Source of the DNA: Metellina segmentata
Lineage: Eukaryota; Arthropoda; Arachnida; Araneae; Tetragnathidae
Direction of reading: 5' to 3'
Length of the DNA stretch: 64,000 nt
Assembly (NCBI GenBank): GCA_947359465.1
Contig: CANAIC010000156.1
Location: forward strand, 62,001-126,000
Positions within the stretch are counted from its first letter, which is position 1; each line of letters opens with the position of its first letter. The notes beneath the pieces are model-generated. The model had not been told where the DNA came from and made no database searches. It saw only the letters and a program-made list of their open reading frames with translations. The translations under genes were made by a program, and so were the position numbers. Positions 397 through 58,277 of the stretch are shown here, piece after piece.

Positions 397-446
397 TTTT
401 ATGTAGCATTCATTCATTATGATTTGACTCATTTCACATTATTATT

Positions 447-467
447 ATATTATATATATATATATAT
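447..467. repeat. (TA)n microsatellite in LINE 3' UTR
   Basis: There is a run of about ten TA dinucleotides where the right LINE copy has only a short AT-rich stretch. This is a local expansion in this copy. Confidence 0.85.
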
Positions 468-476
468 TTTTTTATC

Positions 477-515: not shown

Positions 516-873
516 GGATTGGTGCTGCTCGAGTAGGCGGACTTGGTCGTCATGCCCATTTCGAGATGGTAGGGAAAATAAGAGAACGCGTCCCCTACTC
601 CCTCTTCTGCTTTCGAAATGACGCCGATTTCCTTCGCTACATGGGGGCTGAGGCAGTGCATTAGAAGTTCCTTTGTACTAAGCCCAGCCGCTCTAGCAAC
701 TTGTCCTAGTGTGGTGATGACAGCAGCTCCCCGGAATCGAGAAGGGAGAGTTGCCATCCTCATCCCCGATCCCGGGAGCTTGACGAACTTGAAGAAGTAC
801 ATATCAATTGCACATATCATGGAGCGGTAGCCTTCAGTCAGTTTATCTTCTCCAATGTACCCATCGAAGTCTA
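516..873 (-). pseudogene. Partial first unit U0: N-like fragment fused to LINE 3' UTR
   Basis: Only the upstream (N-terminal) part of the viral fragment is present. The homology to the other units starts at 516, in the middle of the segment for the serine/tyrosine-rich motif region. The minus-strand frame stays open across the junction into the LINE 3' UTR and stops at 434. It therefore reads as a 128-residue chimeric frame (434-820), whose last roughly 25 residues are antisense LINE sequence and not viral. This is the left boundary of the array as seen here. Confidence 0.85.
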
Positions 874-1208
874 TCCAATGGTGTTGAGGCTCCCTTCACT
901 CCGGTTGAGTTGTACAGCTCTAGCACCTCTTCGATGTAACCCGTTTGGTCAAGTGAGACCGAACCGTCTGCTAGTCTGGTTATCTTCATTGAAAGGATCT
1001 CACTTGCTTCTCCTAGGTCCTTGGCCTTGAACCTTTCCATTACTTCACGCTTGAAGGCATTAATAGACTGCTGTTCACCGACAATCAGCATGTCGTCAAC
1101 ATATAACCCAAGGAAAAGCTTTCTCCCCTGGTGATAGTAGACACATGGGTCATATTTGGAACGCAGCAGTCCATAGTCCTTCAAAAAAGAATCAAAACAC
1201 TTGTTCCA
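874..1208 (-). pseudogene. copia/Ty1-type reverse transcriptase fragment (unit U1; repeated in every unit)
   Basis: Minus-strand codons from the Trp-Asn-Lys at 1200-1208 give an unbroken copia RT segment of about 110 residues. In order it carries the conserved approach to the catalytic site (K-Y-D-P-C-V-Y-Y), the active-site block L-Y-V-D-D-M, the L-G-E-A segment and the terminal S-T-P-L-D. After that the frame runs out of phase into viral sequence and stops at 843. A TTG at 1182-1184 allows a 113-residue reading, but nothing suggests it is used. It has no gag, integrase, RNase H or LTR, so it is a dead internal fragment of a Ty1/copia polyprotein, which is normally over 1000 residues. Variants elsewhere change conserved-looking positions (D to V at 3310, 5470, 8710), consistent with no constraint. 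Confidence 0.92.
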
Positions 1209-1953
1209 TTATTATCGTTTAAATGCTCCACCATCTCTTCTAATTTAATATCCAATGGTGTTATCTTGTCTCCTGGTCCGATGACTTGTGGAGTGGCGTC
1301 TGCAACTGGTGCTTCTTCTTCTGTTTCTTCATCGCTCTCATCGCTGTCGGGCTGTGCGTCTGCCATCCGCTCTAGCTCTTTGAGCTGCTTTCTTTGTTCT
1401 TTGATTCGGGTCGCGGCAACCTTTGTGTTGACAAATTGGCGCTTGAATCCGGCACCCCCTCCTAAGCTCAGCCCAACCATAGCGGCCGAATTGGCTGTTC
1501 CAGCGACGTCAACCGCTCCATTCGCCACTATGGCGCCATACGATCTACTGAGCCCCAGCGTGATTCCAATGAAATGGAGCCACATGTATAAAGTCGGATT
1601 GGTGCTGCTCGAGTAGGCGGACTTGATCGTCATGCCCATTTCGAGATGGTAGGGAAAATAAGAGAACGCGTCCCCTACTCCCTCTTCTGCTTTCGAAATG
1701 ACGCCGATTTCCTTCGCTACATGGGGGCTGAGGCAGTGCATTAGAAGTTCCTTTGTACTAAGCCCAGCCGCTCTAGCAACTTGTCCTAGTGTGGTGATGA
1801 CAGCAGCTCCCCGGAATCGAGAAGGGAGAGTTGCCATCCTCATCCCCGATCCCGGGAGCTTGACGAACTTGAAGAAGTACATATCAATTGCACATATCAT
1901 GGAGCGGTAGCCTTCAGTCAGTTTATCTTCTCCAATGTACCCATCGAAGTCTA
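1209..1953 (-). pseudogene. Rhabdovirus-like nucleoprotein fragment (endogenous viral element; unit U1, repeated in every unit)
   Basis: The frame from the ATG at 1898-1900 to the stop at 1181 gives 239 residues and stays open 25 codons further upstream, so the Met is internal and the native N-terminus is missing. Residues 7-39 (D-M-Y-F-F, then R-F-R-G-A-A), 79-89 (F-S-Y-F-P-Y, M-G) and 93-107 (K-S-A-Y-S-S, N-P, a Trp at 107) form the pattern of the central, RNA-binding part of rhabdovirus N proteins, where a Ser-Pro-Tyr-Ser signature is usual; here it is S-A-Y-S at 94-97. Residues 165-197 are charged, with a strongly acidic run at about 183-197. The last few residues and the stop come from copia DNA. 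In the family, N coats genomic RNA and is roughly 400-450 residues, so a little over half is present. Assignment is by pattern recognition; another mononegavirus nucleoprotein is the main alternative. Confidence 0.75.
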
Positions 1954-4900
1954 TCCAATGGTGTTGAGGCTCCCTTCACTCCGGTTGAGTTGTACAGCTC
2001 TAGCACCTCTTCGATGTAACCCGTTTGGTCAAGTGAGACCGAATCGTCTGCTAGTCTGGTTATCTTCATTGAAAGGATCTCACTTGCTTCTCCTAGGTCC
2101 TTGGCCTTGAACCTTTCCATTACTTCACGCTTGAAGGCATTAATAGACTGCTGTTCACCGACAATCAGCATGTCGTCAACATATAACCCAAGGAAAAGCT
2201 TTCTCCCCTGGTGATAGTAGACACATGGGTCATATTTGGAACGCAGCAGTCCATAGTCCTTCAAAAAAGAATCAAAACACTTGTTCCATTATTATCGTTT
2301 AAATGCTCCACCATCTCTTCTAATTTAATATCCAATGGTGTTATCTTGTCTCCTGGTCCGATGACTTGTGGAGTGGCGTCTGCAACTGGTGCTTCTTCTT
2401 CTGTTTCTTCATCGCTCTCATCGCTGTCGGGCTGTGCGTCTGCCATCCGCTCTAGCTCTTTGAGCTGCTTTCTTTGTTCTTTGATTCGGGTCGCGGCAAC
2501 CTTTGTGTTGACAAATTGGCGCTTGAATCCGGCACCCCCTCCTAAGCTCAGCCCAACCATAGCGGCCGAATTGGCTGTTCCAGCGACGTCAACCGCTCCA
2601 TTCGCCACTATGGCGCCATACGATCTACTGAGCCCCAGCGTGATTCCAATGAAATGGAGCCACATGTATAAAGTCGGATTGGTGCTGCTCGAGTAGGCGG
2701 ACTTGGTCGTCATGCCCATTTCGAGATGGTAGGGAAAATAAGAGAACGCGTCCCCTACTCCCTCTTCTGCTTTCGAAATGACGCCGATTTCCTTCGCTAC
2801 ATGGGGGCTGAGGCAGTGCATTAGAAGTTCCTTTGTACTAAGCCCAGCCGCTCTAGCAACTTGTCCTAGTGTGGTGATGACAGCAGCTCCCCGGAATCGA
2901 GAAGGGAGAGTTGCCATCCTCATCCCCGATCCCGGGAGCTTGACGAACTTGAAGAAGTACATATCAATTGCACATATCATGGAGCGGTAGCCTTCAGTCA
3001 GTTTATCTTCTCCAATGTACCCATCGAAGTCTATCGAATGGTGTTGAGGCTCCCTTCACTCCGGTTGAGTTGTACAGCTCTAGCACCTCTTCGATGTAAC
3101 CCGTTTGGTCAAGTGAGACCGAACCGTCTGCTAGTCTGGTTATCTTCATTGAAAGGATCTCACTTGCTTCTCCTAGGTCCTTGGCCTTGAACCTTTCCAT
3201 TACTTCACGCTTGAAGGCATTAATAGACTGCTGTTCACCGACAATCAGCATGTCGTCAACATATAACCCAAGGAAAAGCTTTCTCCCCTGGTGATAGTAG
3301 ACACATGGGACATATTTGGAACGCAGCAGTCCATAGTCCTTCAAAAAAGAATCAAAACACTTGTTCCATTATTATCGTTTAAATGCTCCACCATCTCTTC
3401 TAATTTAATATCCAATGGTGTTATCTTGTCTCCTGGTCCGATGACTTGTGGAGTGGCGTCTGCAACTGGTGCTTCTTCTTCTGTTTCTTCATCGCTCTCA
3501 TCGCTGTCGGGCTGTGCGTCTGCCATCCGCTCTAGCTCTTTGAGCTGCTTTCTTTGTTCTTTGATTCGGGTCGCGGCAACCTTTGTGTTGACAAATTGGC
3601 GCTTGAATCCGGCACCCCCTCCTAAGCTCAGCCCAACCATAGCGGCCGAATTGGCTGTTCCAGCGACGTCAACCGCTCCATTCGCCACTATGGCGCCATA
3701 CGATCTACTGAGCCCCAGCGTGATTCCAATGAAATGGAGCCACATGTATAAAGTCGGATTGGTGCTGCTCGAGTAGGCGGACTTGATCGTCATGCCCATT
3801 TCGAGATGGTAGGGAAAATAAGAGAACGCGTCCCCTACTCCCTCTTCTGCTTTCGAAATGACGCCGATTTCCTTCGCTACATGGGGGCTGAGGCAGTGCA
3901 TTAGAAGTTCCTTTGTACTAAGCCCAGCCGCTCTAGCAACTTGTCCTAGTGTGGTGATGACAGCAGCTCCCCGGAATCGAGAAGGGAGAGTTGCCATCCT
4001 CATCCCCGATCCCGGGAGCTTGACGAACTTGAAGAAGTACATATCAATTGCACATATCATGGAGCGGTAGCCTTCAGTCAGTTTATCTTCTCCAATGTAC
4101 CCATCGAAGTCTATCCAATGGTGTTGAGGCTCCCTTCACTCCGGTTGAGTTGTACAGCTCTAGCACCTCTTCGATGTAACCCGTTTGGTCAAGTGAGACC
4201 GAATCGTCTGCTAGTCTGGTTATCTTCATTGAAAGGATCTCACTTGCTTCTCCTAGGTCCTTGGCCTTGAACCTTTCCATTACTTCACGCTTGAAGGCAT
4301 TAATAGACTGCTGTTCACCGACAATCAGCATGTCGTCAACATATAACCCAAGGAAAAGCTTTCTCCCCTGGTGATAGTAGACACATGGGTCATATTTGGA
4401 ACGCAGCAGTCCATAGTCCTTCAAAAAAGAATCAAAACACTTGTTCCATTATTATCGTTTAAATGCTCCACCATCTCTTCTAATTTAATATCCAATGGTG
4501 TTATCTTGTCTCCTGGTCCGATGACTTGTGGAGTGGCGTCTGCAACTGGTGCTTCTTCTTCTGTTTCTTCATCGCTCTCATCGCTGTCGGGCTGTGCGTC
4601 TGCCATCCGCTCTAGCTCTTTGAGCTGCTTTCTTTGTTCTTTGATTCGGGTCGCGGCAACCTTTGTGTTGACAAATTGGCGCTTGAATCCGGCACCCCCT
4701 CCTAAGCTCAGCCCAACCATAGCGGCCGAATTGGCTGTTCCAGCGACGTCAACCGCTCCATTCGCCACTATGGCGCCATACGATCTACTGAGCCCCAGCG
4801 TGATTCCAATGAAATGGAGCCACATGTATAAAGTCGGATTGGTGCTGCTCGAGTAGGCGGACTTGGTCGTCATGCCCATTTCGAGATGGTAGGGAAAATA

Positions 4901-7900
4901 AGAGAACGCGTCCCCTACTCCCTCTTCTGCTTTCGAAATGACGCCGATTTCCTTCGCTACATGGGGGCTGAGGCAGTGCATTAGAAGTTCCTTTGTACTA
5001 AGCCCAGCCGCTCTAGCAACTTGTCCTAGTGTGGTGATGACAGCAGCTCCCCGGAATCGAGAAGGGAGAGTTGCCATCCTCATCCCCGATCCCGGGAGCT
5101 TGACGAACTTGAAGAAGTACATATCAATTGCACATATCATGGAGCGGTAGCCTTCAGTCAGTTTATCTTCTCCAATGTACCCATCGAAGTCTATCGAATG
5201 GTGTTGAGGCTCCCTTCACTCCGGTTGAGTTGTACAGCTCTAGCACCTCTTCGATGTAACCCGTTTGGTCAAGTGAGACCGAACCGTCTGCTAGTCTGGT
5301 TATCTTCATTGAAAGGATCTCACTTGCTTCTCCTAGGTCCTTGGCCTTGAACCTTTCCATTACTTCACGCTTGAAGGCATTAATAGACTGCTGTTCACCG
5401 ACAATCAGCATGTCGTCAACATATAACCCAAGGAAAAGCTTTCTCCCCTGGTGATAGTAGACACATGGGACATATTTGGAACGCAGCAGTCCATAGTCCT
5501 TCAAAAAAGAATCAAAACACTTGTTCCATTATTATCGTTTAAATGCTCCACCATCTCTTCTAATTTAATATCCAATGGTGTTATCTTGTCTCCTGGTCCG
5601 ATGACTTGTGGAGTGGCGTCTGCAACTGGTGCTTCTTCTTCTGTTTCTTCATCGCTCTCATCGCTGTCGGGCTGTGCGTCTGCCATCCGCTCTAGCTCTT
5701 TGAGCTGCTTTCTTTGTTCTTTGATTCGGGTCGCGGCAACCTTTGTGTTGACAAATTGGCGCTTGAATCCGGCACCCCCTCCTAAGCTCAGCCCAACCAT
5801 AGCGGCCGAATTGGCTGTTCCAGCGACGTCAACCGCTCCATTCGCCACTATGGCGCCATACGATCTACTGAGCCCCAGCGTGATTCCAATGAAATGGAGC
5901 CACATGTATAAAGTCGGATTGGTGCTGCTCGAGTAGGCGGACTTGGTCGTCATGCCCATTTCGAGATGGTAGGGAAAATAAGAGAACGCGTCCCCTACTC
6001 CCTCTTCTGCTTTCGAAATGACGCCGATTTCCTTCGCTACATGGGGGCTGAGGCAGTGCATTAGAAGTTCCTTTGTACTAAGCCCAGCCGCTCTAGCAAC
6101 TTGTCCTAGTGTGGTGATGACAGCAGCTCCCCGGAATCGAGAAGGGAGAGTTGCCATCCTCATCCCCGATCCCGGGAGCTTGACGAACTTGAAGAAGTAC
6201 ATATCAATTGCACATATCATGGAGCGGTAGCCTTCAGTCAGTTTATCTTCTCCAATGTACCCATCGAAGTCTATCCAATGGTGTTGAGGCTCCCTTCACT
6301 CCGGTTGAGTTGTACAGCTCTAGCACCTCTTCGATGTAACCCGTTTGGTCAAGTGAGACCGAACCGTCTGCTAGTCTGGTTATCTTCATTGAAAGGATCT
6401 CACTTGCTTCTCCTAGGTCCTTGGCCTTGAACCTTTCCATTACTTCACGCTTGAAGGCATTAATAGACTGCTGTTCACCGACAATCAGCATGTCGTCAAC
6501 ATATAACCCAAGGAAAAGCTTTCTCCCCTGGTGATAGTAGACACATGGGTCATATTTGGAACGCAGCAGTCCATAGTCCTTCAAAAAAGAATCAAAACAC
6601 TTGTTCCATTATTATCGTTTAAATGCTCCACCATCTCTTCTAATTTAATATCCAATGGTGTTATCTTGTCTCCTGGTCCGATGACTTGTGGAGTGGCGTC
6701 TGCAACTGGTGCTTCTTCTTCTGTTTCTTCATCGCTCTCATCGCTGTCGGGCTGTGCGTCTGCCATCCGCTCTAGCTCTTTGAGCTGCTTTCTTTGTTCT
6801 TTGATTCGGGTCGCGGCAACCTTTGTGTTGACAAATTGGCGCTTGAATCCGGCACCCCCTCCTAAGCTCAGCCCAACCATAGCGGCCGAATTGGCTGTTC
6901 CAGCGACGTCAACCGCTCCATTCGCCACTATGGCGCCATACGATCTACTGAGCCCCAGCGTGATTCCAATGAAATGGAGCCACATGTATAAAGTCGGATT
7001 GGTGCTGCTCGAGTAGGCGGACTTGGTCGTCATGCCCATTTCGAGATGGTAGGGAAAATAAGAGAACGCGTCCCCTACTCCCTCTTCTGCTTTCGAAATG
7101 ACGCCGATTTCCTTCGCTACATGGGGGCTGAGGCAGTGCATTAGAAGTTCCTTTGTACTAAGCCCAGCCGCTCTAGCAACTTGTCCTAGTGTGGTGATGA
7201 CAGCAGCTCCCCGGAATCGAGAAGGGAGAGTTGCCATCCTCATCCCCGATCCCGGGAGCTTGACGAACTTGAAGAAGTACATATCAATTGCACATATCAT
7301 GGAGCGGTAGCCTTCAGTCAGTTTATCTTCTCCAATGTACCCATCGAAGTCTATCCAATGGTGTTGAGGCTCCCTTCACTCCGGTTGAGTTGTACAGCTC
7401 TAGCACCTCTTCGATGTAACCCGTTTGGTCAAGTGAGACCGAACCGTCTTCTAGTCTGGTTATCTTCATTGAAAGGATCTCACTTGCTTCTCCTAGGTCC
7501 TTGGCCTTGAACCTTTCCATTACTTCACGCTTGAAGGCATTAATAGACTGCTGTTCACCGACAATCAGCATGTCGTCAACATATAACCCAAGGAAAAGCT
7601 TTCTCCCCTGGTGATAGTAGACACATGGGTCATATTTGGAACGCAGCAGTCCATAGTCCTTCAAAAAAGAATCAAAACACTTGTTCCATTATTATCGTTT
7701 AAATGCTCCACCATCTCTTCTAATTTAATATCCAATGGTGTTATCTTGTCTCCTGGTCCGATGACTTGTGGAGTGGCGTCTGCAACTGGTGCTCCTTCTT
7801 CTGTTTCTTCATCGCTCTCATCGCTGTTGGGCTGTGCGTCTGCCATCCGCTCTAGCTCTTTGAGCTGCTTTCTTTGTTCTTTGATTCGGGTCGCGGCAAC

Positions 7901-10900
7901 CTTTGTGTTGACAAATTGGCGCTTGAATCCGGCACCCCCTCCTAAGCTCAGCCCAACCATAGCGGCCGAATTGGCTGTTCCAGCGACGTCAACCGCTCCA
8001 TTCGCCACTATGGCGCCATACGATCTACTGAGCCCCAGCGTGATTCCAATGAAATGGAGCCACATGTATAAAGTCGGATTGGTGCTGCTCGAGTAGGCGG
8101 ACTTGGTCGTCATGCCCATTTCGAGATGGTAGGGAAAATAAGAGAACGCGTCCCCTACTCCCTCTTCTGCTTTCGAAATGACGCCGATTTCCTTCGCTAC
8201 ATGGGGGCTGAGGCAGTGCATTAGAAGTTCCTTTGTACTAAGCCCAGCCGCTCTAGCAACTTGTCCTAGTGTGGTGATGACAGCAGCTCCCCGGAATCGA
8301 GAAGGGAGAGTTGCCATCCTCATCCCCGATCCCGGGAGCTTGACGAACTTGAAGAAGTACATATCAATTGCACATATCATGGAGCGGTAGCCTTCAGTCA
8401 GTTTATCTTCTCCAATGTACCCATCGAAGTCTATCGAATGGTGTTGAGGCTCCCTTCACTCCGGTTGAGTTGTACAGCTCTAGCACCTCTTCGATGTAAC
8501 CCGTTTGGTCAAGTGAGACCGAACCGTCTGCTAGTCTGGTTATCTTCATTGAAAGGATCTCACTTGCTTCTCCTAGGTCCTTGGCCTTGAACCTTTCCAT
8601 TACTTCACGCTTGAAGGCATTAATAGACTGCTGTTCACCGACAATCAGCATGTCGTCAACATATAACCCAAGGAAAAGCTTTCTCCCCTGGTGATAGTAG
8701 ACACATGGGACATATTTGGAACGCAGCAGTCCATAGTCCTTCAAAAAAGAATCAAAACACTTGTTCCATTATTATCGTTTAAATGCTCCACCATCTCTTC
8801 TAATTTAATATCCAATGGTGTTATCTTGTCTCCTGGTCCGATGACTTGTGGAGTGGCGTCTGCAACTGGTGCTTCTTCTTCTGTTTCTTCATCGCTCTCA
8901 TCGCTGTCGGGCTGTGCGTCTGCCATCCGCTCTAGCTCTTTGAGCTGCTTTCTTTGTTCTTTGATTCGGGTCGCGGCAACCTTTGTGTTGACAAATTGGC
9001 GCTTGAATCCGGCACCCCCTCCTAAGCTCAGCCCAACCATAGCGGCCGAATTGGCTGTTCCAGCGACGTCAACCGCTCCATTCGCCACTATGGCGCCATA
9101 CGATCTACTGAGCCCCAGCGTGATTCCAATGAAATGGAGCCACATGTATAAAGTCGGATTGGTGCTGCTCGAGTAGGCGGACTTGGTCGTCATGCCCATT
9201 TCGAGATGGTAGGGAAAATAAGAGAACGCGTCCCCTACTCCCTCTTCTGCTTTCGAAATGACGCCGATTTCCTTCGCTACATGGGGGCTGAGGCAGTGCA
9301 TTAGAAGTTCCTTTGTACTAAGCCCAGCCGCTCTAGCAACTTGTCCTAGTGTGGTGATGACAGCAGCTCCCCGGAATCGAGAAGGGAGAGTTGCCATCCT
9401 CATCCCCGATCCCGGGAGCTTGACGAACTTGAAGAAGTACATATCAATTGCACATATCATGGAGCGGTAGCCTTCAGTCAGTTTATCTTCTCCAATGTAC
9501 CCATCGAAGTCTATCCAATGGTGTTGAGGCTCCCTTCACTCCGGTTGAGTTGTACAGCTCTAGCACCTCTTCGATGTAACCCGTTTGGTCAAGTGAGACC
9601 GAACCGTCTGCTAGTCTGGTTATCTTCATTGAAAGGATCTCACTTGCTTCTCCTAGGTCCTTGGCCTTGAACCTTTCCATTACTTCACGCTTGAAGGCAT
9701 TAATAGACTGCTGTTCACCGACAATCAGCATGTCGTCAACATATAACCCAAGGAAAAGCTTTCTCCCCTGGTGATAGTAGACACATGGGTCATATTTGGA
9801 ACGCAGCAGTCCATAGTCCTTCAAAAAAGAATCAAAACACTTGTTCCATTATTATCGTTTAAATGCTCCACCATCTCTTCTAATTTAATATCCAATGGTG
9901 TTATCTTGTCTCCTGGTCCGATGACTTGTGGAGTGGCGTCTGCAACTGGTGCTTCTTCTTCTGTTTCTTCATCGCTCTCATCGCTGTCGGGCTGTGCGTC
10001 TGCCATCCGCTCTAGCTCTTTGAGCTGCTTTCTTTGTTCTTTGATTCGGGTCGCGGCAACCTTTGTGTTGACAAATTGGCGCTTGAATCCGGCACCCCCT
10101 CCTAAGCTCAGCCCAACCATAGCGGCCGAATTGGCTGTTCCAGCGACGTCAACCGCTCCATTCGCCACTATGGCGCCATACGATCTACTGAGCCCCAGCG
10201 TGATTCCAATGAAATGGAGCCACATGTATAAAGTCGGATTGGTGCTGCTCGAGTAGGCGGACTTGGTCGTCATGCCCATTTCGAGATGGTAGGGAAAATA
10301 AGAGAACGCGTCCCCTACTCCCTCTTCTGCTTTCGAAATGACGCCGATTTCCTTCGCTACATGGGGGCTGAGGCAGTGCATTAGAAGTTCCTTTGTACTA
10401 AGCCCAGCCGCTCTAGCAACTTGTCCTAGTGTGGTGATGACAGCAGCTCCCCGGAATCGAGAAGGGAGAGTTGCCATCCTCATCCCCGATCCCGGGAGCT
10501 TGACGAACTTGAAGAAGTACATATCAATTGCACATATCATGGAGCGGTAGCCTTCAGTCAGTTTATCTTCTCCAATGTACCCATCGAAGTCTATCGAATG
10601 GTGTTGAGGCTCCCTTCACTCCGGTTGAGTTGTACAGCTCTAGCACCTCTTCGATGTAACCCGTTTGGTCAAGTGAGACCGAACCGTCTTCTAGTCTGGT
10701 TATCTTCATTGAAAGGATCTCACTTGCTTCTCCTAGGTCCTTGGCCTTGAACCTTTCCATTACTTCACGCTTGAAGGCATTAATAGACTGCTGTTCACCG
10801 ACAATCAGCATGTCGTCAACATATAACCCAAGGAAAAGCTTTCTCCCCTGGTGATAGTAGACACATGGGTCATATTTGGAACGCAGCAGTCCATAGTCCT

Positions 10901-45200: not shown

Positions 45201-48200
45201 GATGTAACCCGTTTGGTCAAGTGAGACCGAACCGTCTGCTAGTCTGGTTATCTTCATTGAAAGGATCTCACTTGCTTCTCCTAGGTCCTTGGCCTTGAAC
45301 CTTTCCATTACTTCACGCTTGAAGGCATTAATAGACTGCTGTTCACCGACAATCAGCATGTCGTCAACATATAACCCAAGGAAAAGCTTTCTCCCCTGGT
45401 GATAGTAGACACATGGGTCATATTTGGAACGCAGCAGTCCATAGTCCTTCAAAAAAGAATCAAAACACTTGTTCCATTATTATCGTTTAAATGCTCCACC
45501 ATCTCTTCTAATTTAATATCCAATGGTGTTATCTTGTCTCCTGGTCCGATGACTTGTGGAGTGGCGTCTGCAACTGGTGCTTCTTCTTCTGTTTCTTCAT
45601 CGCTCTCATCGCTGTCGGGCTGTGCGTCTGCCATCCGCTCTAGCTCTTTGAGCTGCTTTCTTTGTTCTTTGATTCGGGTCGCGGCAACCTTTGTGTTGAC
45701 AAATTGGCGCTTGAATCCGGCACCCCCTCCTAAGCTCAGCCCAACCATAGCGGCCGAATTGGCTGTTCCAGCGACGTCAACCGCTCCATTCGCCACTATG
45801 GCGCCATACGATCTACTGAGCCCCAGCGTGATTCCAATGAAATGGAGCCACATGTATAAAGTCGGATTGGTGCTGCTCGAGTAGGCGGACTTGGTCGTCA
45901 TGCCCATTTCGAGATGGTAGGGAAAATAAGAGAACGCGTCCCCTACTCCCTCTTCTGCTTTCGAAATGACGCCGATTTCCTTCGCTACATGGGGGCTGAG
46001 GCAGTGCATTAGAAGTTCCTTTGTACTAAGCCCAGCCGCTCTAGCAACTTGTCCTAGTGTGGTGATGACAGCAGCTCCCCGGAATCGAGAAGGGAGAGTT
46101 GCCATCCTCATCCCCGATCCCGGGAGCTTGACGAACTTGAAGAAGTACATATCAATTGCACATATCATGGAGCGGTAGCCTTCAGTCAGTTTATCTTCTC
46201 CAATGTACCCATCGAAGTCTATCCAATGGTGTTGAGGCTCCCTTCACTCCGGTTGAGTTGTACAGCTCTAGCACCTCTTCGATGTAACCCGTTTGGTCAA
46301 GTGAGACCGAACCGTCTGCTAGTCTGGTTATCTTCATTGAAAGGATCTCACTTGCTTCTCCTAGGTCCTTGGCCTTGAACCTTTCCATTACTTCACGCTT
46401 GAAGGCATTAATAGACTGCTGTTCACCGACAATCAGCATGTCGTCAACATATAACCCAAGGAAAAGCTTTCTCCCCTGGTGATAGTAGACACATGGGTCA
46501 TATTTGGAACGCAGCAGTCCATAGTCCTTCAAAAAAGAATCAAAACACTTGTTCCATTATTATCGTTTAAATGCTCCACCATCTCTTCTAATTTAATATC
46601 CAATGGTGTTATCTTGTCTCCTGGTCCGATGACTTGTGGAGTGGCGTCTGCAACTGGTGCTTCTTCTTCTGTTTCTTCATCGCTCTCATCGCTGTCGGGC
46701 TGTGCGTCTGCCATCCGCTCTAGCTCTTTGAGCTGCTTTCTTTGTTCTTTGATTCGGGTCGCGGCAACCTTTGTGTTGACAAATTGGCGCTTGAATCCGG
46801 CACCCCCTCCTAAGCTCAGCCCAACCATAGCGGCCGAATTGGCTGTTCCAGCGACGTCAACCGCTCCATTCGCCACTATGGCGCCATACGATCTACTGAG
46901 CCCCAGCGTGATTCCAATGAAATGGAGCCACATGTATAAAGTCGGATTGGTGCTGCTCGAGTAGGCGGACTTGGTCGTCATGCCCATTTCGAGATGGTAG
47001 GGAAAATAAGAGAACGCGTCCCCTACTCCCTCTTCTGCTTTCGAAATGACGCCGATTTCCTTCGCTACATGGGGGCTGAGGCAGTGCATTAGAAGTTCCT
47101 TTGTACTAAGCCCAGCCGCTCTAGCAACTTGTCCTAGTGTGGTGATGACAGCAGCTCCCCGGAATCGAGAAGGGAGAGTTGCCATCCTCATCCCCGATCC
47201 CGGGAGCTTGACGAACTTGAAGAAGTACATATCAATTGCACATATCATGGAGCGGTAGCCTTCAGTCAGTTTATCTTCTCCAATGTACCCATCGAAGTCT
47301 ATCCAATGGTGTTGAGGCTCCCTTCACTCCGGTTGAGTTGTACAGCTCTAGCACCTCTTCGATGTAACCCGTTTGGTCAAGTGAGACCGAACCGTCTGCT
47401 AGTCTGGTTATCTTCATTGAAAGGATCTCACTTGCTTCTCCTAGGTCCTTGGCCTTGAACCTTTCCATTACTTCACGCTTGAAGGCATTAATAGACTGCT
47501 GTTCACCGACAATCAGCATGTCGTCAACATATAACCCAAGGAAAAGCTTTCTCCCCTGGTGATAGTAGACACATGGGTCATATTTGGAACGCAGCAGTCC
47601 ATAGTCCTTCAAAAAAGAATCAAAACACTTGTTCCATTATTATCGTTTAAATGCTCCACCATCTCTTCTAATTTAATATCCAATGGTGTTATCTTGTCTC
47701 CTGGTCCGATGACTTGTGGAGTGGCGTCTGCAACTGGTGCTTCTTCTTCTGTTTCTTCATCGCTCTCATCGCTGTCGGGCTGTGCGTCTGCCATCCGCTC
47801 TAGCTCTTTGAGCTGCTTTCTTTGTTCTTTGATTCGGGTCGCGGCAACCTTTGTGTTGACAAATTGGCGCTTGAATCCGGCACCCCCTCCTAAGCTCAGC
47901 CCAACCATAGCGGCCGAATTGGCTGTTCCAGCGACGTCAACCGCTCCATTCGCCACTATGGCGCCATACGATCTACTGAGCCCCAGCGTGATTCCAATGA
48001 AATGGAGCCACATGTATAAAGTCGGATTGGTGCTGCTCGAGTAGGCGGACTTGGTCGTCATGCCCATTTCGAGATGGTAGGGAAAATAAGAGAACGCGTC
48101 CCCTACTCCCTCTTCTGCTTTCGAAATGACGCCGATTTCCTTCGCTACATGGGGGCTGAGGCAGTGCATTAGAAGTTCCTTTGTACTAAGCCCAGCCGCT

Positions 48201-50510
48201 CTAGCAACTTGTCCTAGTGTGGTGATGACAGCAGCTCCCCGGAATCGAGAAGGGAGAGTTGCCATCCTCATCCCCGATCCCGGGAGCTTGACGAACTTGA
48301 AGAAGTACATATCAATTGCACATATCATGGAGCGGTAGCCTTCAGTCAGTTTATCTTCTCCAATGTACCCATCGAAGTCTATCCAATGGTGTTGAGGCTC
48401 CCTTCACTCCGGTTGAGTTGTACAGCTCTAGCACCTCTTCGATGTAACCCGTTTGGTCAAGTGAGACCGAACCGTCTGCTAGTCTGGTTATCTTCATTGA
48501 AAGGATCTCACTTGCTTCTCCTAGGTCCTTGGCCTTGAACCTTTCCATTACTTCACGCTTGAAGGCATTAATAGACTGCTGTTCACCGACAATCAGCATG
48601 TCGTCAACATATAACCCAAGGAAAAGCTTTCTCCCCTGGTGATAGTAGACACATGGGTCATATTTGGAACGCAGCAGTCCATAGTCCTTCAAAAAAGAAT
48701 CAAAACACTTGTTCCATTATTATCGTTTAAATGCTCCACCATCTCTTCTAATTTAATATCCAATGGTGTTATCTTGTCTCCTGGTCCGATGACTTGTGGA
48801 GTGGCGTCTGCAACTGGTGCTTCTTCTTCTGTTTCTTCATCGCTCTCATCGCTGTCGGGCTGTGCGTCTGCCATCCGCTCTAGCTCTTTGAGCTGCTTTC
48901 TTTGTTCTTTGATTCGGGTCGCGGCAACCTTTGTGTTGACAAATTGGCGCTTGAATCCGGCACCCCCTCCTAAGCTCAGCCCAACCATAGCGGCCGAATT
49001 GGCTGTTCCAGCGACGTCAACCGCTCCATTCGCCACTATGGCGCCATACGATCTACTGAGCCCCAGCGTGATTCCAATGAAATGGAGCCACATGTATAAA
49101 GTCGGATTGGTGCTGCTCGAGTAGGCGGACTTGGTCGTCATGCCCATTTCGAGATGGTAGGGAAAATAAGAGAACGCGTCCCCTACTCCCTCTTCTGCTT
49201 TCGAAATGACGCCGATTTCCTTCGCTACATGGGGGCTGAGGCAGTGCATTAGAAGTTCCTTTGTACTAAGCCCAGCCGCTCTAGCAACTTGTCCTAGTGT
49301 GGTGATGACAGCAGCTCCCCGGAATCGAGAAGGGAGAGTTGCCATCCTCATCCCCGATCCCGGGAGCTTGACGAACTTGAAGAAGTACATATCAATTGCA
49401 CATATCATGGAGCGGTAGCCTTCAGTCAGTTTATCTTCTCCAATGTACCCATCGAAGTCTATCCAATGGTGTTGAGGCTCCCTTCACTCCGGTTGAGTTG
49501 TACAGCTCTAGCACCTCTTCGATGTAACCCGTTTGGTCAAGTGAGACCGAACCGTCTGCTAGTCTGGTTATCTTCATTGAAAGGATCTCACTTGCTTCTC
49601 CTAGGTCCTTGGCCTTGAACCTTTCCATTACTTCACGCTTGAAGGCATTAATAGACTGCTGTTCACCGACAATCAGCATGTCGTCAACATATAACCCAAG
49701 GAAAAGCTTTCTCCCCTGGTGATAGTAGACACATGGGTCATATTTGGAACGCAGCAGTCCATAGTCCTTCAAAAAAGAATCAAAACACTTGTTCCATTAT
49801 TATCGTTTAAATGCTCCACCATCTCTTCTAATTTAATATCCAATGGTGTTATCTTGTCTCCTGGTCCGATGACTTGTGGAGTGGCGTCTGCAACTGGTGC
49901 TTCTTCTTCTGTTTCTTCATCGCTCTCATCGCTGTCGGGCTGTGCGTCTGCCATCCGCTCTAGCTCTTTGAGCTGCTTTCTTTGTTCTTTGATTCGGGTC
50001 GCGGCAACCTTTGTGTTGACAAATTGGCGCTTGAATCCGGCACCCCCTCCTAAGCTCAGCCCAACCATAGCGGCCGAATTGGCTGTTCCAGCGACGTCAA
50101 CCGCTCCATTCGCCACTATGGCGCCATACGATCTACTGAGCCCCAGCGTGATTCCAATGAAATGGAGCCACATGTATAAAGTCGGATTGGTGCTGCTCGA
50201 GTAGGCGGACTTGGTCGTCATGCCCATTTCGAGATGGTAGGGAAAATAAGAGAACGCGTCCCCTACTCCCTCTTCTGCTTTCGAAATGACGCCGATTTCC
50301 TTCGCTACATGGGGGCTGAGGCAGTGCATTAGAAGTTCCTTTGTACTAAGCCCAGCCGCTCTAGCAACTTGTCCTAGTGTGGTGATGACAGCAGCTCCCC
50401 GGAATCGAGAAGGGAGAGTTGCCATCCTCATCCCCGATCCCGGGAGCTTGACGAACTTGAAGAAGTACATATCAATTGCACATATCATGGAGCGGTAGCC
50501 TTCAGTCAGT

Positions 50511-50876
50511 TTATCTTCTCCAATGTACCCATCGAAGTCTATCCAATGGTGTTGAGGCTCCCTTCACTCCGGTTGAGTTGTACAGCTCTAGCACCTCTTC
50601 GATGTAACCCGTTTGGTCAAGTGAGACCGAACCGTCTGCTAGTCTGGTTATCTTCATTGAAAGGATCTCACTTGCTTCTCCTAGGTCCTTGGCCTTGAAC
50701 CTTTCCATTACTTCACGCTTGAAGGCATTAATAGACTGCTGTTCACCGACAATCAGCATGTCGTCAACATATAACCCAAGGAAAAGCTTTCTCCCCTGGT
50801 GATAGTAGACACATGGGTCATATTTGGAACGCAGCAGTCCATAGTCCTTCAAAAAAGAATCAAACACTTGTTCCAT
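50511..50876 (-). pseudogene. copia RT fragment, unit U47, frame extended by a 1-bp deletion
   Basis: The AAAA run near 50862 is AAA in this unit. On the minus strand this puts an ATG from the end of the viral fragment in frame with copia, giving a 121-residue reading through F-D-S-F-L-K into the RT segment. In the same stroke the N-like frame (50860-51567, 235 residues) ends four residues early. It is the only unit where a Met-initiated frame crosses from viral-side into copia sequence. A homopolymer error is possible. Confidence 0.8.
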
Positions 50877-53800
50877 TATTATCGTTTAAATGCTCCACCA
50901 TCTCTTCTAATTTAATATCCAATGGTGTTATCTTGTCTCCTGGTCCGATGACTTGTGGAGTGGCGTCTGCAACTGGTGCTTCTTCTTCTGTTTCTTCATC
51001 GCTCTCATCGCTGTCGGGCTGTGCGTCTGCCATCCGCTCTAGCTCTTTGAGCTGCTTTCTTTGTTCTTTGATTCGGGTCGCGGCAACCTTTGTGTTGACA
51101 AATTGGCGCTTGAATCCGGCACCCCCTCCTAAGCTCAGCCCAACCATAGCGGCCGAATTGGCTGTTCCAGCGACGTCAACCGCTCCATTCGCCACTATGG
51201 CGCCATACGATCTACTGAGCCCCAGCGTGATTCCAATGAAATGGAGCCACATGTATAAAGTCGGATTGGTGCTGCTCGAGTAGGCGGACTTGGTCGTCAT
51301 GCCCATTTCGAGATGGTAGGGAAAATAAGAGAACGCGTCCCCTACTCCCTCTTCTGCTTTCGAAATGACGCCGATTTCCTTCGCTACATGGGGGCTGAGG
51401 CAGTGCATTAGAAGTTCCTTTGTACTAAGCCCAGCCGCTCTAGCAACTTGTCCTAGTGTGGTGATGACAGCAGCTCCCCGGAATCGAGAAGGGAGAGTTG
51501 CCATCCTCATCCCCGATCCCGGGAGCTTGACGAACTTGAAGAAGTACATATCAATTGCACATATCATGGAGCGGTAGCCTTCAGTCAGTTTATCTTCTCC
51601 AATGTACCCATCGAAGTCTATCCAATGGTGTTGAGGCTCCCTTCACTCCGGTTGAGTTGTACAGCTCTAGCACCTCTTCGATGTAACCCGTTTGGTCAAG
51701 TGAGACCGAACCGTCTGCTAGTCTGGTTATCTTCATTGAAAGGATCTCACTTGCTTCTCCTAGGTCCTTGGCCTTGAACCTTTCCATTACTTCACGCTTG
51801 AAGGCATTAATAGACTGCTGTTCACCGACAATCAGCATGTCGTCAACATATAACCCAAGGAAAAGCTTTCTCCCCTGGTGATAGTAGACACATGGGTCAT
51901 ATTTGGAACGCAGCAGTCCATAGTCCTTCAAAAAAGAATCAAAACACTTGTTCCATTATTATCGTTTAAATGCTCCACCATCTCTTCTAATTTAATATCC
52001 AATGGTGTTATCTTGTCTCCTGGTCCGATGACTTGTGGAGTGGCGTCTGCAACTGGTGCTTCTTCTTCTGTTTCTTCATCGCTCTCATCGCTGTCGGGCT
52101 GTGCGTCTGCCATCCGCTCTAGCTCTTTGAGCTGCTTTCTTTGTTCTTTGATTCGGGTCGCGGCAACCTTTGTGTTGACAAATTGGCGCTTGAATACGGC
52201 ACCCCCTCCTAAGCTCAGCCCAACCATAGCGGCCGAATTGGCTGTTCCAGCGACGTCAACCGCTCCATTCGCCACTATGGCGCCATACGATCTACTGAGC
52301 CCCAGCGTGATTCCAATGAAATGGAGCCACATGTATAAAGTCGGATTGGTGCTGCTCGAGTAGGCGGACTTGGTCGTCATGCCCATTTCGAGATGGTAGG
52401 GAAAATAAGAGAACGCGTCCCCTACTCCCTCTTCTGCTTTCGAAATGACGCCGATTTCCTTCGCTACATGGGGGCTGAGGCAGTGCATTAGAAGTTCCTT
52501 TGTACTAAGCCCAGCCGCTCTAGCAACTTGTCCTAGTGTGGTGATGACAGCAGCTCCCCGGAATCGAGAAGGGAGAGTTGCCATCCTCATCCCCGATCCC
52601 GGGAGCTTGACGAACTTGAAGAAGTACATATCAATTGCACATATCATGGAGCGGTAGCCTTCAGTCAGTTTATCTTCTCCAATGTACCCATCGAAGTCTA
52701 TCCAATGGTGTTGAGGCTCCCTTCACTCCGGTTGAGTTGTACAGCTCTAGCACCTCTTCGATGTAACCCGTTTGGTCAAGTGAGACCGAACCGTCTGCTA
52801 GTCTGGTTATCTTCATTGAAAGGATCTCACTTGCTTCTCCTAGGTCCTTGGCCTTGAACCTTTCCATTACTTCACGCTTGAAGGCATTAATAGACTGCTG
52901 TTCACCGACAATCAGCATGTCGTCAACATATAACCCAAGGAAAAGCTTTCTCCCCTGGTGATAGTAGACACATGGGTCATATTTGGAACGCAGCAGTCCA
53001 TAGTCCTTCAAAAAAGAATCAAAACACTTGTTCCATTATTATCGTTTAAATGCTCCACCATCTCTTCTAATTTAATATCCAATGGTGTTATCTTGTCTCC
53101 TGGTCCGATGACTTGTGGAGTGGCGTCTGCAACTGGTGCTTCTTCTTCTGTTTCTTCATCGCTCTCATCGCTGTCGGGCTGTGCGTCTGCCATCCGCTCT
53201 AGCTCTTTGAGCTGCTTTCTTTGTTCTTTGATTCGGGTCGCGGCAACCTTTGTGTTGACAAATTGGCGCTTGAATACGGCACCCCCTCCTAAGCTCAGCC
53301 CAACCATAGCGGCCGAATTGGCTGTTCCAGCGACGTCAACCGCTCCATTCGCCACTATGGCGCCATACGATCTACTGAGCCCCAGCGTGATTCCAATGAA
53401 ATGGAGCCACATGTATAAAGTCGGATTGGTGCTGCTCGAGTAGGCGGACTTGGTCGTCATGCCCATTTCGAGATGGTAGGGAAAATAAGAGAACGCGTCC
53501 CCTACTCCCTCTTCTGCTTTCGAAATGACGCCGATTTCCTTCGCTACATGGGGGCTGAGGCAGTGCATTAGAAGTTCCTTTGTACTAAGCCCAGCCGCTC
53601 TAGCAACTTGTCCTAGTGTGGTGATGACAGCAGCTCCCCGGAATCGAGAAGGGAGAGTTGCCATCCTCATCCCCGATCCCGGGAGCTTGACGAACTTGAA
53701 GAAGTACATATCAATTGCACATATCATGGAGCGGTAGCCTTCAGTCAGTTTATCTTCTCCAATGTACCCATCGAAGTCTATCCAATGGTGTTGAGGCTCC

Positions 53801-56800
53801 CTTCACTCCGGTTGAGTTGTACAGCTCTAGCACCTCTTCGATGTAACCCGTTTGGTCAAGTGAGACCGAACCGTCTGCTAGTCTGGTTATCTTCATTGAA
53901 AGGATCTCACTTGCTTCTCCTAGGTCCTTGGCCTTGAACCTTTCCATTACTTCACGCTTGAAGGCATTAATAGACTGCTGTTCACCGACAATCAGCATGT
54001 CGTCAACATATAACCCAAGGAAAAGCTTTCTCCCCTGGTGATAGTAGACACATGGGTCATATTTGGAACGCAGCAGTCCATAGTCCTTCAAAAAAGAATC
54101 AAAACACTTGTTCCATTATTATCGTTTAAATGCTCCACCATCTCTTCTAATTTAATATCCAATGGTGTTATCTTGTCTCCTGGTCCGATGACTTGTGGAG
54201 TGGCGTCTGCAACTGGTGCTTCTTCTTCTGTTTCTTCATCGCTCTCATCGCTGTCGGGCTGTGCGTCTGCCATCCGCTCTAGCTCTTTGAGCTGCTTTCT
54301 TTGTTCTTTGATTCGGGTCGCGGCAACCTTTGTGTTGACAAATTGGCGCTTGAATCCGGCACCCCCTCCTAAGCTCAGCCCAACCATAGCGGCCGAATTG
54401 GCTGTTCCAGCGACGTCAACCGCTCCATTCGCCACTATGGCGCCATACGATCTACTGAGCCCCAGCGTGATTCCAATGAAATGGAGCCACATGTATAAAG
54501 TCGGATTGGTGCTGCTCGAGTAGGCGGACTTGGTCGTCATGCCCATTTCGAGATGGTAGGGAAAATAAGAGAACGCGTCCCCTACTCCCTCTTCTGCTTT
54601 CGAAATGACGCCGATTTCCTTCGCTACATGGGGGCTGAGGCAGTGCATTAGAAGTTCCTTTGTACTAAGCCCAGCCGCTCTAGCAACTTGTCCTAGTGTG
54701 GTGATGACAGCAGCTCCCCGGAATCGAGAAGGGAGAGTTGCCATCCTCATCCCCGATCCCGGGAGCTTGACGAACTTGAAGAAGTACATATCAATTGCAC
54801 ATATCATGGAGCGGTAGCCTTCAGTCAGTTTATCTTCTCCAATGTACCCATCGAAGTCTATCCAATGGTGTTGAGGCTCCCTTCACTCCGGTTGAGTTGT
54901 ACAGCTCTAGCACCTCTTCGATGTAACCCGTTTGGTCAAGTGAGACCGAACCGTCTGCTAGTCTGGTTATCTTCATTGAAAGGATCTCACTTGCTTCTCC
55001 TAGGTCCTTGGCCTTGAACCTTTCCATTACTTCACGCTTGAAGGCATTAATAGACTGCTGTTCACCGACAATCAGCATGTCGTCAACATATAACCCAAGG
55101 AAAAGCTTTCTCCCCTGGTGATAGTAGACACATGGGTCATATTTGGAACGCAGCAGTCCATAGTCCTTCAAAAAAGAATCAAAACACTTGTTCCATTATT
55201 ATCGTTTAAATGCTCCACCATCTCTTCTAATTTAATATCCAATGGTGTTATCTTGTCTCCTGGTCCGATGACTTGTGGAGTGGCGTCTGCAACTGGTGCT
55301 TCTTCTTCTGTTTCTTCATCGCTCTCATCGCTGTCGGGCTGTGCGTCTGCCATCCGCTCTAGCTCTTTGAGCTGCTTTCTTTGTTCTTTGATTCGGGTCG
55401 CGGCAACCTTTGTGTTGACAAATTGGCGCTTGAATCCGGCACCCCCTCCTAAGCTCAGCCCAACCATAGCGGCCGAATTGGCTGTTCCAGCGACGTCAAC
55501 CGCTCCATTCGCCACTATGGCGCCATACGATCTACTGAGCCCCAGCGTGATTCCAATGAAATGGAGCCACATGTATAAAGTCGGATTGGTGCTGCTCGAG
55601 TAGGCGGACTTGGTCGTCATGCCCATTTCGAGATGGTAGGGAAAATAAGAGAACGCGTCCCCTACTCCCTCTTCTGCTTTCGAAATGACGCCGATTTCCT
55701 TCGCTACATGGGGGCTGAGGCAGTGCATTAGAAGTTCCTTTGTACTAAGCCCAGCCGCTCTAGCAACTTGTCCTAGTGTGGTGATGACAGCAGCTCCCCG
55801 GAATCGAGAAGGGAGAGTTGCCATCCTCATCCCCGATCCCGGGAGCTTGACGAACTTGAAGAAGTACATATCAATTGCACATATCATGGAGCGGTAGCCT
55901 TCAGTCAGTTTATCTTCTCCAATGTACCCATCGAAGTCTATCCAATGGTGTTGAGGCTCCCTTCACTCCGGTTGAGTTGTACAGCTCTAGCACCTCTTCG
56001 ATGTAACCCGTTTGGTCAAGTGAGACCGAACCGTCTGCTAGTCTGGTTATCTTCATTGAAAGGATCTCACTTGCTTCTCCTAGGTCCTTGGCCTTGAACC
56101 TTTCCATTACTTCACGCTTGAAGGCATTAATAGACTGCTGTTCACCGACAATCAGCATGTCGTCAACATATAACCCAAGGAAAAGCTTTCTCCCCTGGTG
56201 ATAGTAGACACATGGGTCATATTTGGAACGCAGCAGTCCATAGTCCTTCAAAAAAGAATCAAAACACTTGTTCCATTATTATCGTTTAAATGCTCCACCA
56301 TCTCTTCTAATTTAATATCCAATGGTGTTATCTTGTCTCCTGGTCCGATGACTTGTGGAGTGGCGTCTGCAACTGGTGCTTCTTCTTCTGTTTCTTCATC
56401 GCTCTCATCGCTGTCGGGCTGTGCGTCTGCCATCCGCTCTAGCTCTTTGAGCTGCTTTCTTTGTTCTTTGATTCGGGTCGCGGCAACCTTTGTGTTGACA
56501 AATTGGCGCTTGAATCCGGCACCCCCTCCTAAGCTCAGCCCAACCATAGCGGCCGAATTGGCTGTTCCAGCGACGTCAACCGCTCCATTCGCCACTATGG
56601 CGCCATACGATCTACTGAGCCCCAGCGTGATTCCAATGAAATGGAGCCACATGTATAAAGTCGGATTGGTGCTGCTCGAGTAGGCGGACTTGGTCGTCAT
56701 GCCCATTTCGAGATGGTAGGGAAAATAAGAGAACGCGTCCCCTACTCCCTCTTCTGCTTTCGAAATGACGCCGATTTCCTTCGCTACATGGGGGCTGAGG

Positions 56801-57327
56801 CAGTGCATTAGAAGTTCCTTTGTACTAAGCCCAGCCGCTCTAGCAACTTGTCCTAGTGTGGTGATGACAGCAGCTCCCCGGAATCGAGAAGGGAGAGTTG
56901 CCATCCTCATCCCCGATCCCGGGAGCTTGACGAACTTGAAGAAGTACATATCAATTGCACATATCATGGAGCGGTAGCCTTCAGTCAGTTTATCTTCTCC
57001 AATGTACCCATCGAAGTCTATCCAATGGTGTTGAGGCTCCCTTCACTCCGGTTGAGTTGTACAGCTCTAGCACCTCTTCGATGTAACCCGTTTGGTCAAG
57101 TGAGACCGAACCGTCTGCTAGTCTGGTTATCTTCATTGAAAGGATCTCACTTGCTTCTCCTAGGTCCTTGGCCTTGAACCTTTCCATTACTTCACGCTTG
57201 AAGGCATTAATAGACTGCTGTTCACCGACAATCAGCATGTCGTCAACATATAACCCAAGGAAAAGCTTTCTCCCCTGGTGATAGTAGACACATGGGTCAT
57301 ATTTGGAACGCAGCAGTCCATAGTCCT

Positions 57328-58047
57328 TCAAAAAAGAATCAAAACACTTGTTCCATTATTATCGTTTAAATGCTCCACCATCTCTTCTAATTTAATATCC
57401 AATGGTGTTATCTTGTCTCCTGGTCCGATGACTTGTGGAGTGGCGTCTGCAACTGGTGCTTCTTCTTCTGTTTCTTCATCGCTCTCATCGCTGTCGGGCT
57501 GTGCGTCTGCCATCCGCTCTAGCTCTTTGAGCTGCTTTCTTTGTTCTTTGATTCGGGTCGCGGCAACCTTTGTGTTGACAAATTGGCGCTTGAATCCGGC
57601 ACCCCCTCCTAAGCTCAGCCCAACCATAGCGGCCGAATTGGCTGTTCCAGCGACGTCAAACGCTCCATTCGCCACTATGGCGCCATACGATCTACTGAGC
57701 CCCAGCGTGATTCCAATGAAATGGAGCCACATGTATAAAGTCGGATTGGTGCTGCTCGAGTAGGCGGACTTGGTCGTCATGCCCATTTCGAGATGGTAGG
57801 GAAAATAAGAGAACGCGTCCCCTACTCCCTCTTCTGCTTTCGAAATGACGCCGATTTCCTTCGCTACATGGGGGCTGAGGCAGTGCATTAGAAGTTCCTT
57901 TGTACTAAGCCCAGCCGCTCTAGCAACTTGTCCTAGTTTGGTGATGACAGCAGCTCCCCGGAATCGAGAAGGGAGAGTTGCCATCCTCATCCCCGATCCC
58001 GGGAGCTTGACGAACTTGAAGAAGTACATATCAATTGCACATATCAT
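57328..58047 (-). pseudogene. N-like fragment, unit U53 (last complete unit)
   Basis: This is a full 239-residue frame with two private substitutions, Val-to-Phe (57660) and Thr-to-Lys (57938). The following partial unit also has a private change. The last copies before the LINE are therefore slightly more diverged than the uniform block to their left, as is common near the edges or interruptions of a tandem array. Confidence 0.85.
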
Positions 58048-58100
58048 GGAGCGGTAGCCTTCAGTCAGTTTATCTTCTCCAATGTACCCATCGAAGTCTA

Positions 58101-58277
58101 TCCAATGGTGTTGAGGCTCCCTTCACTCCGGTTGAGTTGTACAGCTCTAGCACCTCTTCGATGTAACCCGTTTGGTCAAGTGAGACCGAACCGTCTGCTA
58201 GTCTGGTTATCTTCATTGAAAGGATCTCATTTGCTTCTCCTAGGTCCTTGGCCTTGAACCTTTCCATTACTTCACGC
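58101..58277 (-). pseudogene. copia RT fragment of unit U54, cut by LINE insertion
   Basis: The downstream half of the copia fragment lies here and ends at the LINE insertion point. The other part, including the Y-V-D-D codons, resumes at 63932-64000. One private change (58230, Ser-to-Asn) distinguishes it. A 73-residue frame starting inside the LINE (58291) is an accident of the junction. Confidence 0.9.
58263..58277. repeat. Target-site duplication, left copy
   Basis: TCCATTACTTCACGC here is repeated at 63917-63931 on the far side of the LINE. The first four bases are ambiguous because the LINE's AATCC tail ends in the same letters, so the duplication is 11 to 15 bp. Confidence 0.9.

What the first reader, a model, noticed from the sequence alone, without database searches (positions are those of the whole stretch)
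516..58277. A satellite-scale tandem array made of endogenous viral nucleoprotein plus copia RT
Fifty-three complete and two partial 1080-bp units, over 57 kb, each fuse a rhabdovirus-like N fragment to a copia RT fragment. Single viral insertions next to retrotransposons are well known in arthropods; amplification of one such chimera into a long satellite is unusual. The repeat period, unit content and continuation past the LINE are directly visible. The viral assignment is by residue pattern.
Basis: partly seen in the sequence, partly recalled or inferred. Interest (0 to 1): 0.92.

Follow-up and report, generated by a model that had tools for sequence, protein, structure and literature searches.

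The report
Satellite built from virus-retrotransposon chimera
In what is probably a spider genome, a piece of a rhabdovirus nucleoprotein gene joined to a piece of a copia retrotransposon is repeated end to end about 94 times at one place, and a second, separately formed virus-retrotransposon chimera in the same genome is also tandemly repeated.

Summary
In detail: window 516-58277 has 53 complete head-to-tail units (47 of 53 exactly 1080 bp), and the array resumes in phase after a LINE. So does the viral reading: Pfam Rhabdo_ncap E 5e-29, solved viral nucleoproteins to E 2.3e-19; the partner is copia RT, E 1.6e-18. Outside the window, contig C164 (159 kb) holds 93.6 unit-equivalents. Its left end is native copia; its right end fits base for base a C4 sequence that runs on into the rest of N. 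A copia-N chimera (6-nt shared join, as template switching leaves) was thus probably duplicated in place and expanded by unequal exchange. New: a second array on C11 (29 N matches, about 5.3-kb period) has an N 89% identical in protein but 39% at third codon positions, spliced into a gypsy-like element, so two related viruses were captured by two LTR elements. SNPs within the first array look neutral for protein. A tandem gypsy-like trimer without N shows that tandem growth needs no viral part. Function is inferred only; antiviral piRNA use is untested.

The parts
516..58277 (.). tandem array: 53 complete units plus a 535-bp partial unit, all in one orientation
1596..2675 (.). example unit (1080 bp): unit 1-359 and about 690-1080 are N, unit 360 to about 695 is copia, both coded on the minus strand
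2261..3055 (-). 264-aa frame across a unit boundary: middle and C-terminal part of a rhabdovirus nucleoprotein, profile positions 182-375 of 410; its first and last few residues are copia DNA out of frame
   Evidence: PF00945 E 5e-29; solved viral nucleoproteins E 2.3e-19
3003..3368 (-). 121-aa copia reverse-transcriptase frame with a YVDD box (name recalled), profile positions 130-242 of 244
   Evidence: PF07727 RVT_2 E 1.6e-18
2285..2291 (.). junction 1 (unit about 690-696), N to copia: six nucleotides shared by copia and by the related N on C11; taken as the template-switch point
1954..1955 (.). junction 2 (unit 359/360), copia to N: tandem-duplication breakpoint, 2-nt shared sequence; native sequence replaces it at the left edge (copia) and right edge (N)
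58278..63916 (+). jockey-like LINE inserted into the array: ORF1 (zinc knuckles read by eye, no Pfam match), endonuclease + RT, RNase H, (AATCC)n tail
   Evidence: relatives
58263..58277 (.). 15-bp target-site duplication of that LINE, left copy (right copy 63917-63931)
63917..64000 (.). array resumes in phase
1..515 (+). 3' end of another copy of the same LINE family (439 of 509 aligned positions identical to the right LINE), joined to unit position 1; the same junction recurs at C164:19338

Best explanation
A young single-locus satellite made in four steps. (1) While copying copia RNA, copia reverse transcriptase jumped to a rhabdovirus N mRNA at a 6-nt shared stretch, and the chimeric cDNA entered a chromosome (chimera shown; template switch inferred from the join). 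(2) An internal 1,080-bp segment, from the middle of N to the middle of copia RT, was duplicated head to tail in place through a 2-nt shared stretch (breakpoint and native sequence at both ends shown; event inferred). (3) Unequal exchange expanded and homogenised it to about 94 unit-equivalents as assembled, and LINEs of one family landed in it (insertions with target duplications shown; exchange inferred from local sharing of variants). (4) It now drifts as non-coding tandem DNA (inferred). Use as a source of antiviral small RNAs is possible but nothing here tests it.
For: Left end: C164:1-869 and 7854-8064 are native copia, 99.2 and 99.5% identical to an LTR-bounded element in L025 whose two 214-bp LTRs are identical and which has a TTCTT target duplication, read by eye. 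Right end: C164 stops at unit 359 at base 159,000, and the C4 sequence behind a 200-N gap begins at unit 360; that last unit runs on into N sequence that the unit lacks, and further N pieces lie collinear along C4 between insertions (24,495,594-24,495,638, 15 residues, E 0.002; 24,477,827-24,478,096 and 24,463,848-24,464,108). Junction 1 shares 6 nt, junction 2 shares 2 nt. In the window, 12 sets of shared variants: carriers lie 4.7 units apart on average against 18.3 in permutations, 0 of 20,000 as low. 48 of 89 complete units are exact; several units in the right part carry 9- or 13-bp deletions. Four insertions of LINE-family DNA have 13-18-bp target duplications. Within-array SNPs in the N frame: 22 non-synonymous, 4 synonymous, 0 stop; neutral expectation 70:27:3 per cent.
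Against: No reads, Hi-C or FISH: that C164 sits in the C4 gap rests on the fit of two ends. The left edge is not clean: copia runs to unit 677, then 11.3 kb of LINE sequence, then unit 1, so unit 678-1080 is missing there; a like jump (unit 329, LINEs, unit 1) occurs at C164:52,067-62,516. The unit number may be wrong either way. The N 3' end of this virus is known only from a relative, so junction 1's shared 6 nt is inferred, and such microhomology also fits end joining. The SNP test rests on 26 changes; 87 of 89 N frames read across contiguous units are still open, so weak constraint is not excluded. A second N array in the same genome suggests that chance may not be the whole story.
Confidence: 0.73

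Rival explanations
1. Adaptive array: the locus is transcribed antisense to N and processed to piRNAs that act against related rhabdoviruses, and copy number was raised by selection.
For: Two different LTR elements captured N from two related viruses and both became tandem arrays in one genome; all units on C164 have one orientation; EVE-piRNA links are described for mosquitoes (PMC5497376, PMC7448346, passages seen).
Against: No small-RNA data. The gypsy-like family forms a tandem trimer without N on C5, so tandem growth does not need a viral part. N pieces at C11:34.52 and 34.54 Mb, without stops in the matched stretches, lie outside both arrays.
Confidence: 0.16
2. Protein-level function: the truncated N is made and interferes with N of incoming virus.
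For: 87 of 89 N frames read across contiguous units are open; a capsid-like protein encoded in a yeast genome acts in this way against a totivirus (PMC6166632, abstract seen).
Against: Within-array substitutions fit neutrality; the frame lacks N's first half (profile starts at 182 of 410); homogenisation alone keeps frames alike; 2 of the 89 frames are shifted, and two right-part units not in that count carry a 13-bp deletion in N.
Confidence: 0.05
3. Rolling-circle origin: an extrachromosomal circle of the 1,080-bp segment was replicated and inserted as a ready-made array.
For: Uniform monomers, 48 of 89 exact; one breakpoint per unit.
Against: The ends are native copia on one side and native N on the other, as in-place duplication predicts; an inserted circle would have to have returned to its own source.
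Confidence: 0.12
4. Assembly artefact: a short array inflated by the assembler.
For: Long runs of identical units; the contig is unplaced and ends inside the array.
Against: Units have distinct variants in structured patterns, four insertions with target duplications lie inside it, and native sequence is found at both ends.
Confidence: 0.05

Closest known systems
Non-retroviral endogenous RNA virus elements (NIRVS/nrEVEs) beside LTR retrotransposons in Aedes (PMC5497376, PMC7448346; passages seen)
   Same: rhabdovirus N pieces, association with LTR elements, clusters of duplicated copies
   Different: the passages seen speak of rearranged or duplicated clusters; here one chimera is a head-to-tail array of about 94 near-identical unit-equivalents with native sequence at both ends, in a host that is probably a spider
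Retrotransposon-derived satellites in Lathyrus (PMC7004042; abstract and discussion read)
   Same: parts of LTR retrotransposons expanded to satellite arrays
   Different: there the seeds are 3'UTR tandem repeats; here the monomer is a coding segment of copia plus part of a viral gene
Tandem LTR-retrotransposon arrays sharing LTRs (PMC11899658; abstract seen)
   Same: may fit the C11 gypsy-N array and the C5 trimer (periods about 5.3 and 5.8 kb)
   Different: the window's unit contains no LTR, so it is not of this kind

Membership tests
Rhabdovirus nucleoprotein (PF00945) as source of the unit | match above the curated family cut-off | tested here: met
   101.9 bits against 26, E 5e-29; solved viral nucleoproteins at E 2.3e-19
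Endogenous viral element | integrated in host chromosomal DNA, not a free virus | tested here: met
   continuous with copia on C164 and with C4 sequence, interrupted by LINEs with target duplications; C164 itself is unplaced
Ty1/copia element as second source | RVT_2 domain; LTRs and target duplication in the parent | tested here: met
   L025 element, 214-bp identical LTRs and TTCTT duplication
Satellite DNA | long head-to-tail array of homogeneous monomers | tested here: met
   93.6 unit-equivalents, 89 complete units
Satellite DNA | heterochromatic or centromeric placement, genome-wide abundance | not testable with these tools
   no cytology; in the unit search every listed place spanning both N and copia lies on C164 or at its C4 edge (37 of 61 candidates scored)
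Tandem LTR-retrotransposon array | each unit holds an LTR | tested here: not met
   window unit = copia internal segment plus N only; the C11 array may qualify (LTR-like stretch judged by eye)
piRNA-producing EVE locus | small RNAs of piRNA size from the locus | not testable with these tools
   no RNA data

The most novel reading that the evidence does not exclude
This host lineage repeatedly records RNA-virus infections by letting LTR retrotransposons copy viral mRNAs, and recent records are then multiplied into tandem arrays that serve as high-dose antisense sources against the virus: a copy-number-tunable form of EVE immunity. Three mononegavirus-derived loci with mostly open frames (N on C164/C4, N on C11, L on C11) are tandem, and the frame-broken L pieces at C11:88 Mb are not.
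Probability: 0.11. Interest if true: 0.92.

Novelty: new variant of a known kind. Interest (0 to 1): 0.68.

Why it matters
Satellites usually lose their origin; here native copia on one side and native N on the other survive, so most steps from RNA virus to satellite can be read at one locus. Two independent virus-LTR-element chimeras, both tandemly repeated, in one genome make a testable case for whether tandem growth of viral records is chance, a property of these retrotransposons, or selected.

Tried and rejected
Tandem Repeats Finder was useless at this period. Protein search with the unit's N frame over 5.8 billion proteins found nothing at E 0.001 among 2662 word-sharing candidates; viral contigs: 19 pattern matches, none confirmed. 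The C11 N found one distant N (485 aa, 35% identity; 7991 candidates scored), so no close relative of the virus was seen at that sensitivity. I first took the C4 copy for a separate single-copy progenitor (note); the 200-N gap, the fit to C164 and the N continuation made it the array's right edge. I first thought all N copies lay in two arrays (note); one search showed N pieces at C11:34.52 and 34.54 Mb, so that was dropped. A first count of open N frames, 83 of 84, silently skipped frame-shifted units; a recount gave 87 of 89, 2 shifted, 5 unit starts without a contiguous preceding N part left out. A species name was not reached: size and chromosome number resemble Argiope bruennichi, but the assembly in PMC7788392 has 2,231 scaffolds against 173 contigs here (abstract and assembly section read). 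Two checks did not complete because the machine was busy: rhabdovirus glycoprotein PF00974 and spidroin PF16763 (spider marker; both accessions recalled).

Full report
What is there. Window 516-58277 is a head-to-tail array of 54 unit starts with 53 complete units, 47 of them 1080 bp. Units are nearly identical: 22 of 53 have no difference from the commonest sequence. A LINE with endonuclease/RT and RNase H domains, and an ORF1 whose zinc knuckles I read by eye (no Pfam match), interrupts it at 58278 with a 15-bp target duplication; the array then resumes in phase.

What the unit is. On the minus strand each unit reads through the middle and C-terminal part of a rhabdovirus nucleoprotein (PF00945, E 5e-29, profile 182-375 of 410) and, out of frame with it, a copia reverse-transcriptase fragment (PF07727, E 1.6e-18). 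Of 19 PDB sequences listed at E up to 1, 12 are named as viral nucleoprotein or a fusion with it, best E 2.3e-19; 7 are weak and unrelated.

Where it is. The window is part of an unplaced 159,000-bp contig, C164, of a 1.665-Gb assembly with 173 contigs. Among the 120 listed relatives of the LINE's second ORF (252 found), those whose row names an organism are spiders (Araneus, Trichonephila, Stegodyphus, Nephila), so the host is probably a spider; the marker search that would settle this did not complete. Unit sequence on C164 totals 101,122 bp, 93.6 unit-equivalents, in six blocks from 19,339 to 159,000 separated by LINE-family sequence.

Edges and history. At the left end C164:1-869 plus 7854-8064 is native copia, 99.2 and 99.5% identical to an LTR-bounded element with identical 214-bp LTRs and a TTCTT duplication. 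This edge is not clean: copia runs to unit position 677, 11.3 kb of LINE sequence follows, and the array then starts at unit position 1. At the right end C164 stops at unit position 359, at base 159,000; on C4, behind a 200-N gap, sequence begins at unit position 360. A break at a round number is what a Hi-C scaffolder can leave (inference, recalled practice). The C4 unit runs on into N sequence absent from the unit; N pieces then follow collinearly on C4 between insertions, at 24,495,594-24,495,638 (15 residues, E 0.002), 24,477,827-24,478,096 and 24,463,848-24,464,108 (84 and 82% protein identity to the C11 N). The founder was therefore a copia element joined to a longer N copy, and the repeated unit is an internal slice of it. 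The N/copia join shares six nucleotides between copia and a related N; the copia/N join made by duplication shares two.

How it grew. In the window, variants shared by several units sit close together: 12 variant sets, mean distance 4.7 units against 18.3 in 20,000 permutations, none as low. The leftmost block is the most alike (23 of 30 complete units exact) and several units in the right part (C164:125,917, 150,850, 158,308-159,000 and the C4 unit) carry 9- or 13-bp deletions. Four insertions of LINE-family DNA with 13-18-bp target duplications lie in it. Local sharing of variants is what unequal exchange gives (established theory, recalled). There are 41 distinct single-base changes in the array: in the N frame 22 non-synonymous, 4 synonymous, 0 stops, near the neutral expectation (0.70: 0.27: 0.03); in the copia frame 13 and 2, 0 stops. 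N is open across 87 of 89 contiguous unit pairs and frame-shifted in 2. So there is no sign of protein-level constraint since amplification, with low power.

A second, independent case. A genome-wide search with PF00945 gave 102 scored matches (127 candidates): 72 on C164, 1 on C4 (the array edge), 29 on C11 between 11,225,787 and 11,417,442, mostly about 5.3 kb apart with some larger gaps; 6 of the 29 have a stop inside. In the 20 kb of C11 compared, the repeats are 99.6-99.9% identical. There a 685-aa open frame joins an integrase (H2C2, rve) to N (E 1.3e-40, profile 47-372 of 410). Compared with a related gypsy-like element on C2, 2,157 bp are replaced by a 1,492-bp segment bearing N, as two template switches would do (inference). 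Over 254 codons the two N copies are 89.4% identical in protein, 74.1% in DNA and 38.6% at third positions; dN 0.062, dS not computable, i.e. saturated. That divergence must have arisen under strong purifying selection, most simply in two exogenous viruses, before two recent endogenisations. N pieces outside the arrays exist at C11:34.52 and 34.54 Mb (66-70% protein identity, no stops inside; 3 of 36 rows, where 31 rows are the C11 array and 2 are C4).

A third locus and the control. The polymerase family PF00946 gave 6 matches of 12 scored candidates: three at C11:33.70-33.72 Mb about 10.3 kb apart with open frames, and three with stops at C11:88.18-88.20 Mb. The 10.3-kb repeat is 99.9% identical over the 4.7 kb compared. 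Against reading this as special to viral inserts: of 40 scored places of the gypsy-like segment (390 candidates), 12 lie outside the N array, and three of these, on C5 at 67.67-67.68 Mb, form a tandem trimer without N.

Literature. Ten searches (open-licence PMC only, several with capped lists) showed no listed title or abstract start that describes a satellite made of an RNA-virus nucleoprotein segment; subscription journals are not covered. Related work seen: Aedes NIRVS and nrEVEs with LTR elements and duplicated clusters (PMC5497376, PMC7448346, passages), satellites from LTR elements in a legume (PMC7004042, abstract and discussion), tandem LTR elements (PMC11899658, abstract), an endogenous viral-protein defence in yeast (PMC6166632, abstract).

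Verdict. Observation confirmed and interpretation supported. The kinds (EVE, retrotransposon chimera, satellite) are known; the combination, the native sequence kept at both ends and the parallel second array are what is new as far as these searches show.

Noticed in passing
G000:C11:11,224,260-11,417,442 (L012, L013, L027, L029-L033): Second tandem array, about 5.3-kb period: gag/protease-like frame, then integrase joined in frame to a nearly full-length rhabdovirus N; no RT domain found in the two ORFs scanned. Left edge is joined to a truncated copy of the same LINE family.
   Followed up: partly
G000:C11:33,702,616-33,723,615 (L034, L035): Three tandem copies, about 10.3-kb period, carrying part of a mononegavirus polymerase with open frames beside a ~500-bp repeat that may be an LTR.
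   Followed up: partly
G000:C11:88,175,291-88,196,566: Three polymerase pieces with stops inside: probably an older viral insertion.
   Followed up: no
G000:C11:34,521,058-34,521,471 and 34,543,771-34,544,129: Further N pieces, 66-70% protein identity to the C11 N, outside both arrays, no stops in the matched stretches.
   Followed up: no
G000:C5:67,667,193 / 67,673,016 / 67,678,841: Tandem trimer (5.82-kb spacing) of the gypsy-like family without N.
   Followed up: no
window 1-515 and C164:19338, 62515: The same LINE-end/unit-1 junction occurs twice, 43 kb apart, with 98.8% identity over 839 bp: probably a larger duplication of LINE end plus array start.
   Followed up: partly
C164:120,278-158,307; C4:24,482,001-24,506,585: Many copies of one LINE family in and beside the array, in one orientation in the stretches compared, often head to tail or nested: possible target preference.
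   Followed up: no
window units 11, 23 and 35, counted from 0 (starts 12396, 25353, 38309): The same 3-bp deletion at exactly 12-unit spacing, a hint of a 12-unit exchange register.
   Followed up: no
C164:870-7853: About 7 kb inserted in the left-edge copia with a 6-bp overlap of the flanks; element not identified.
   Followed up: no
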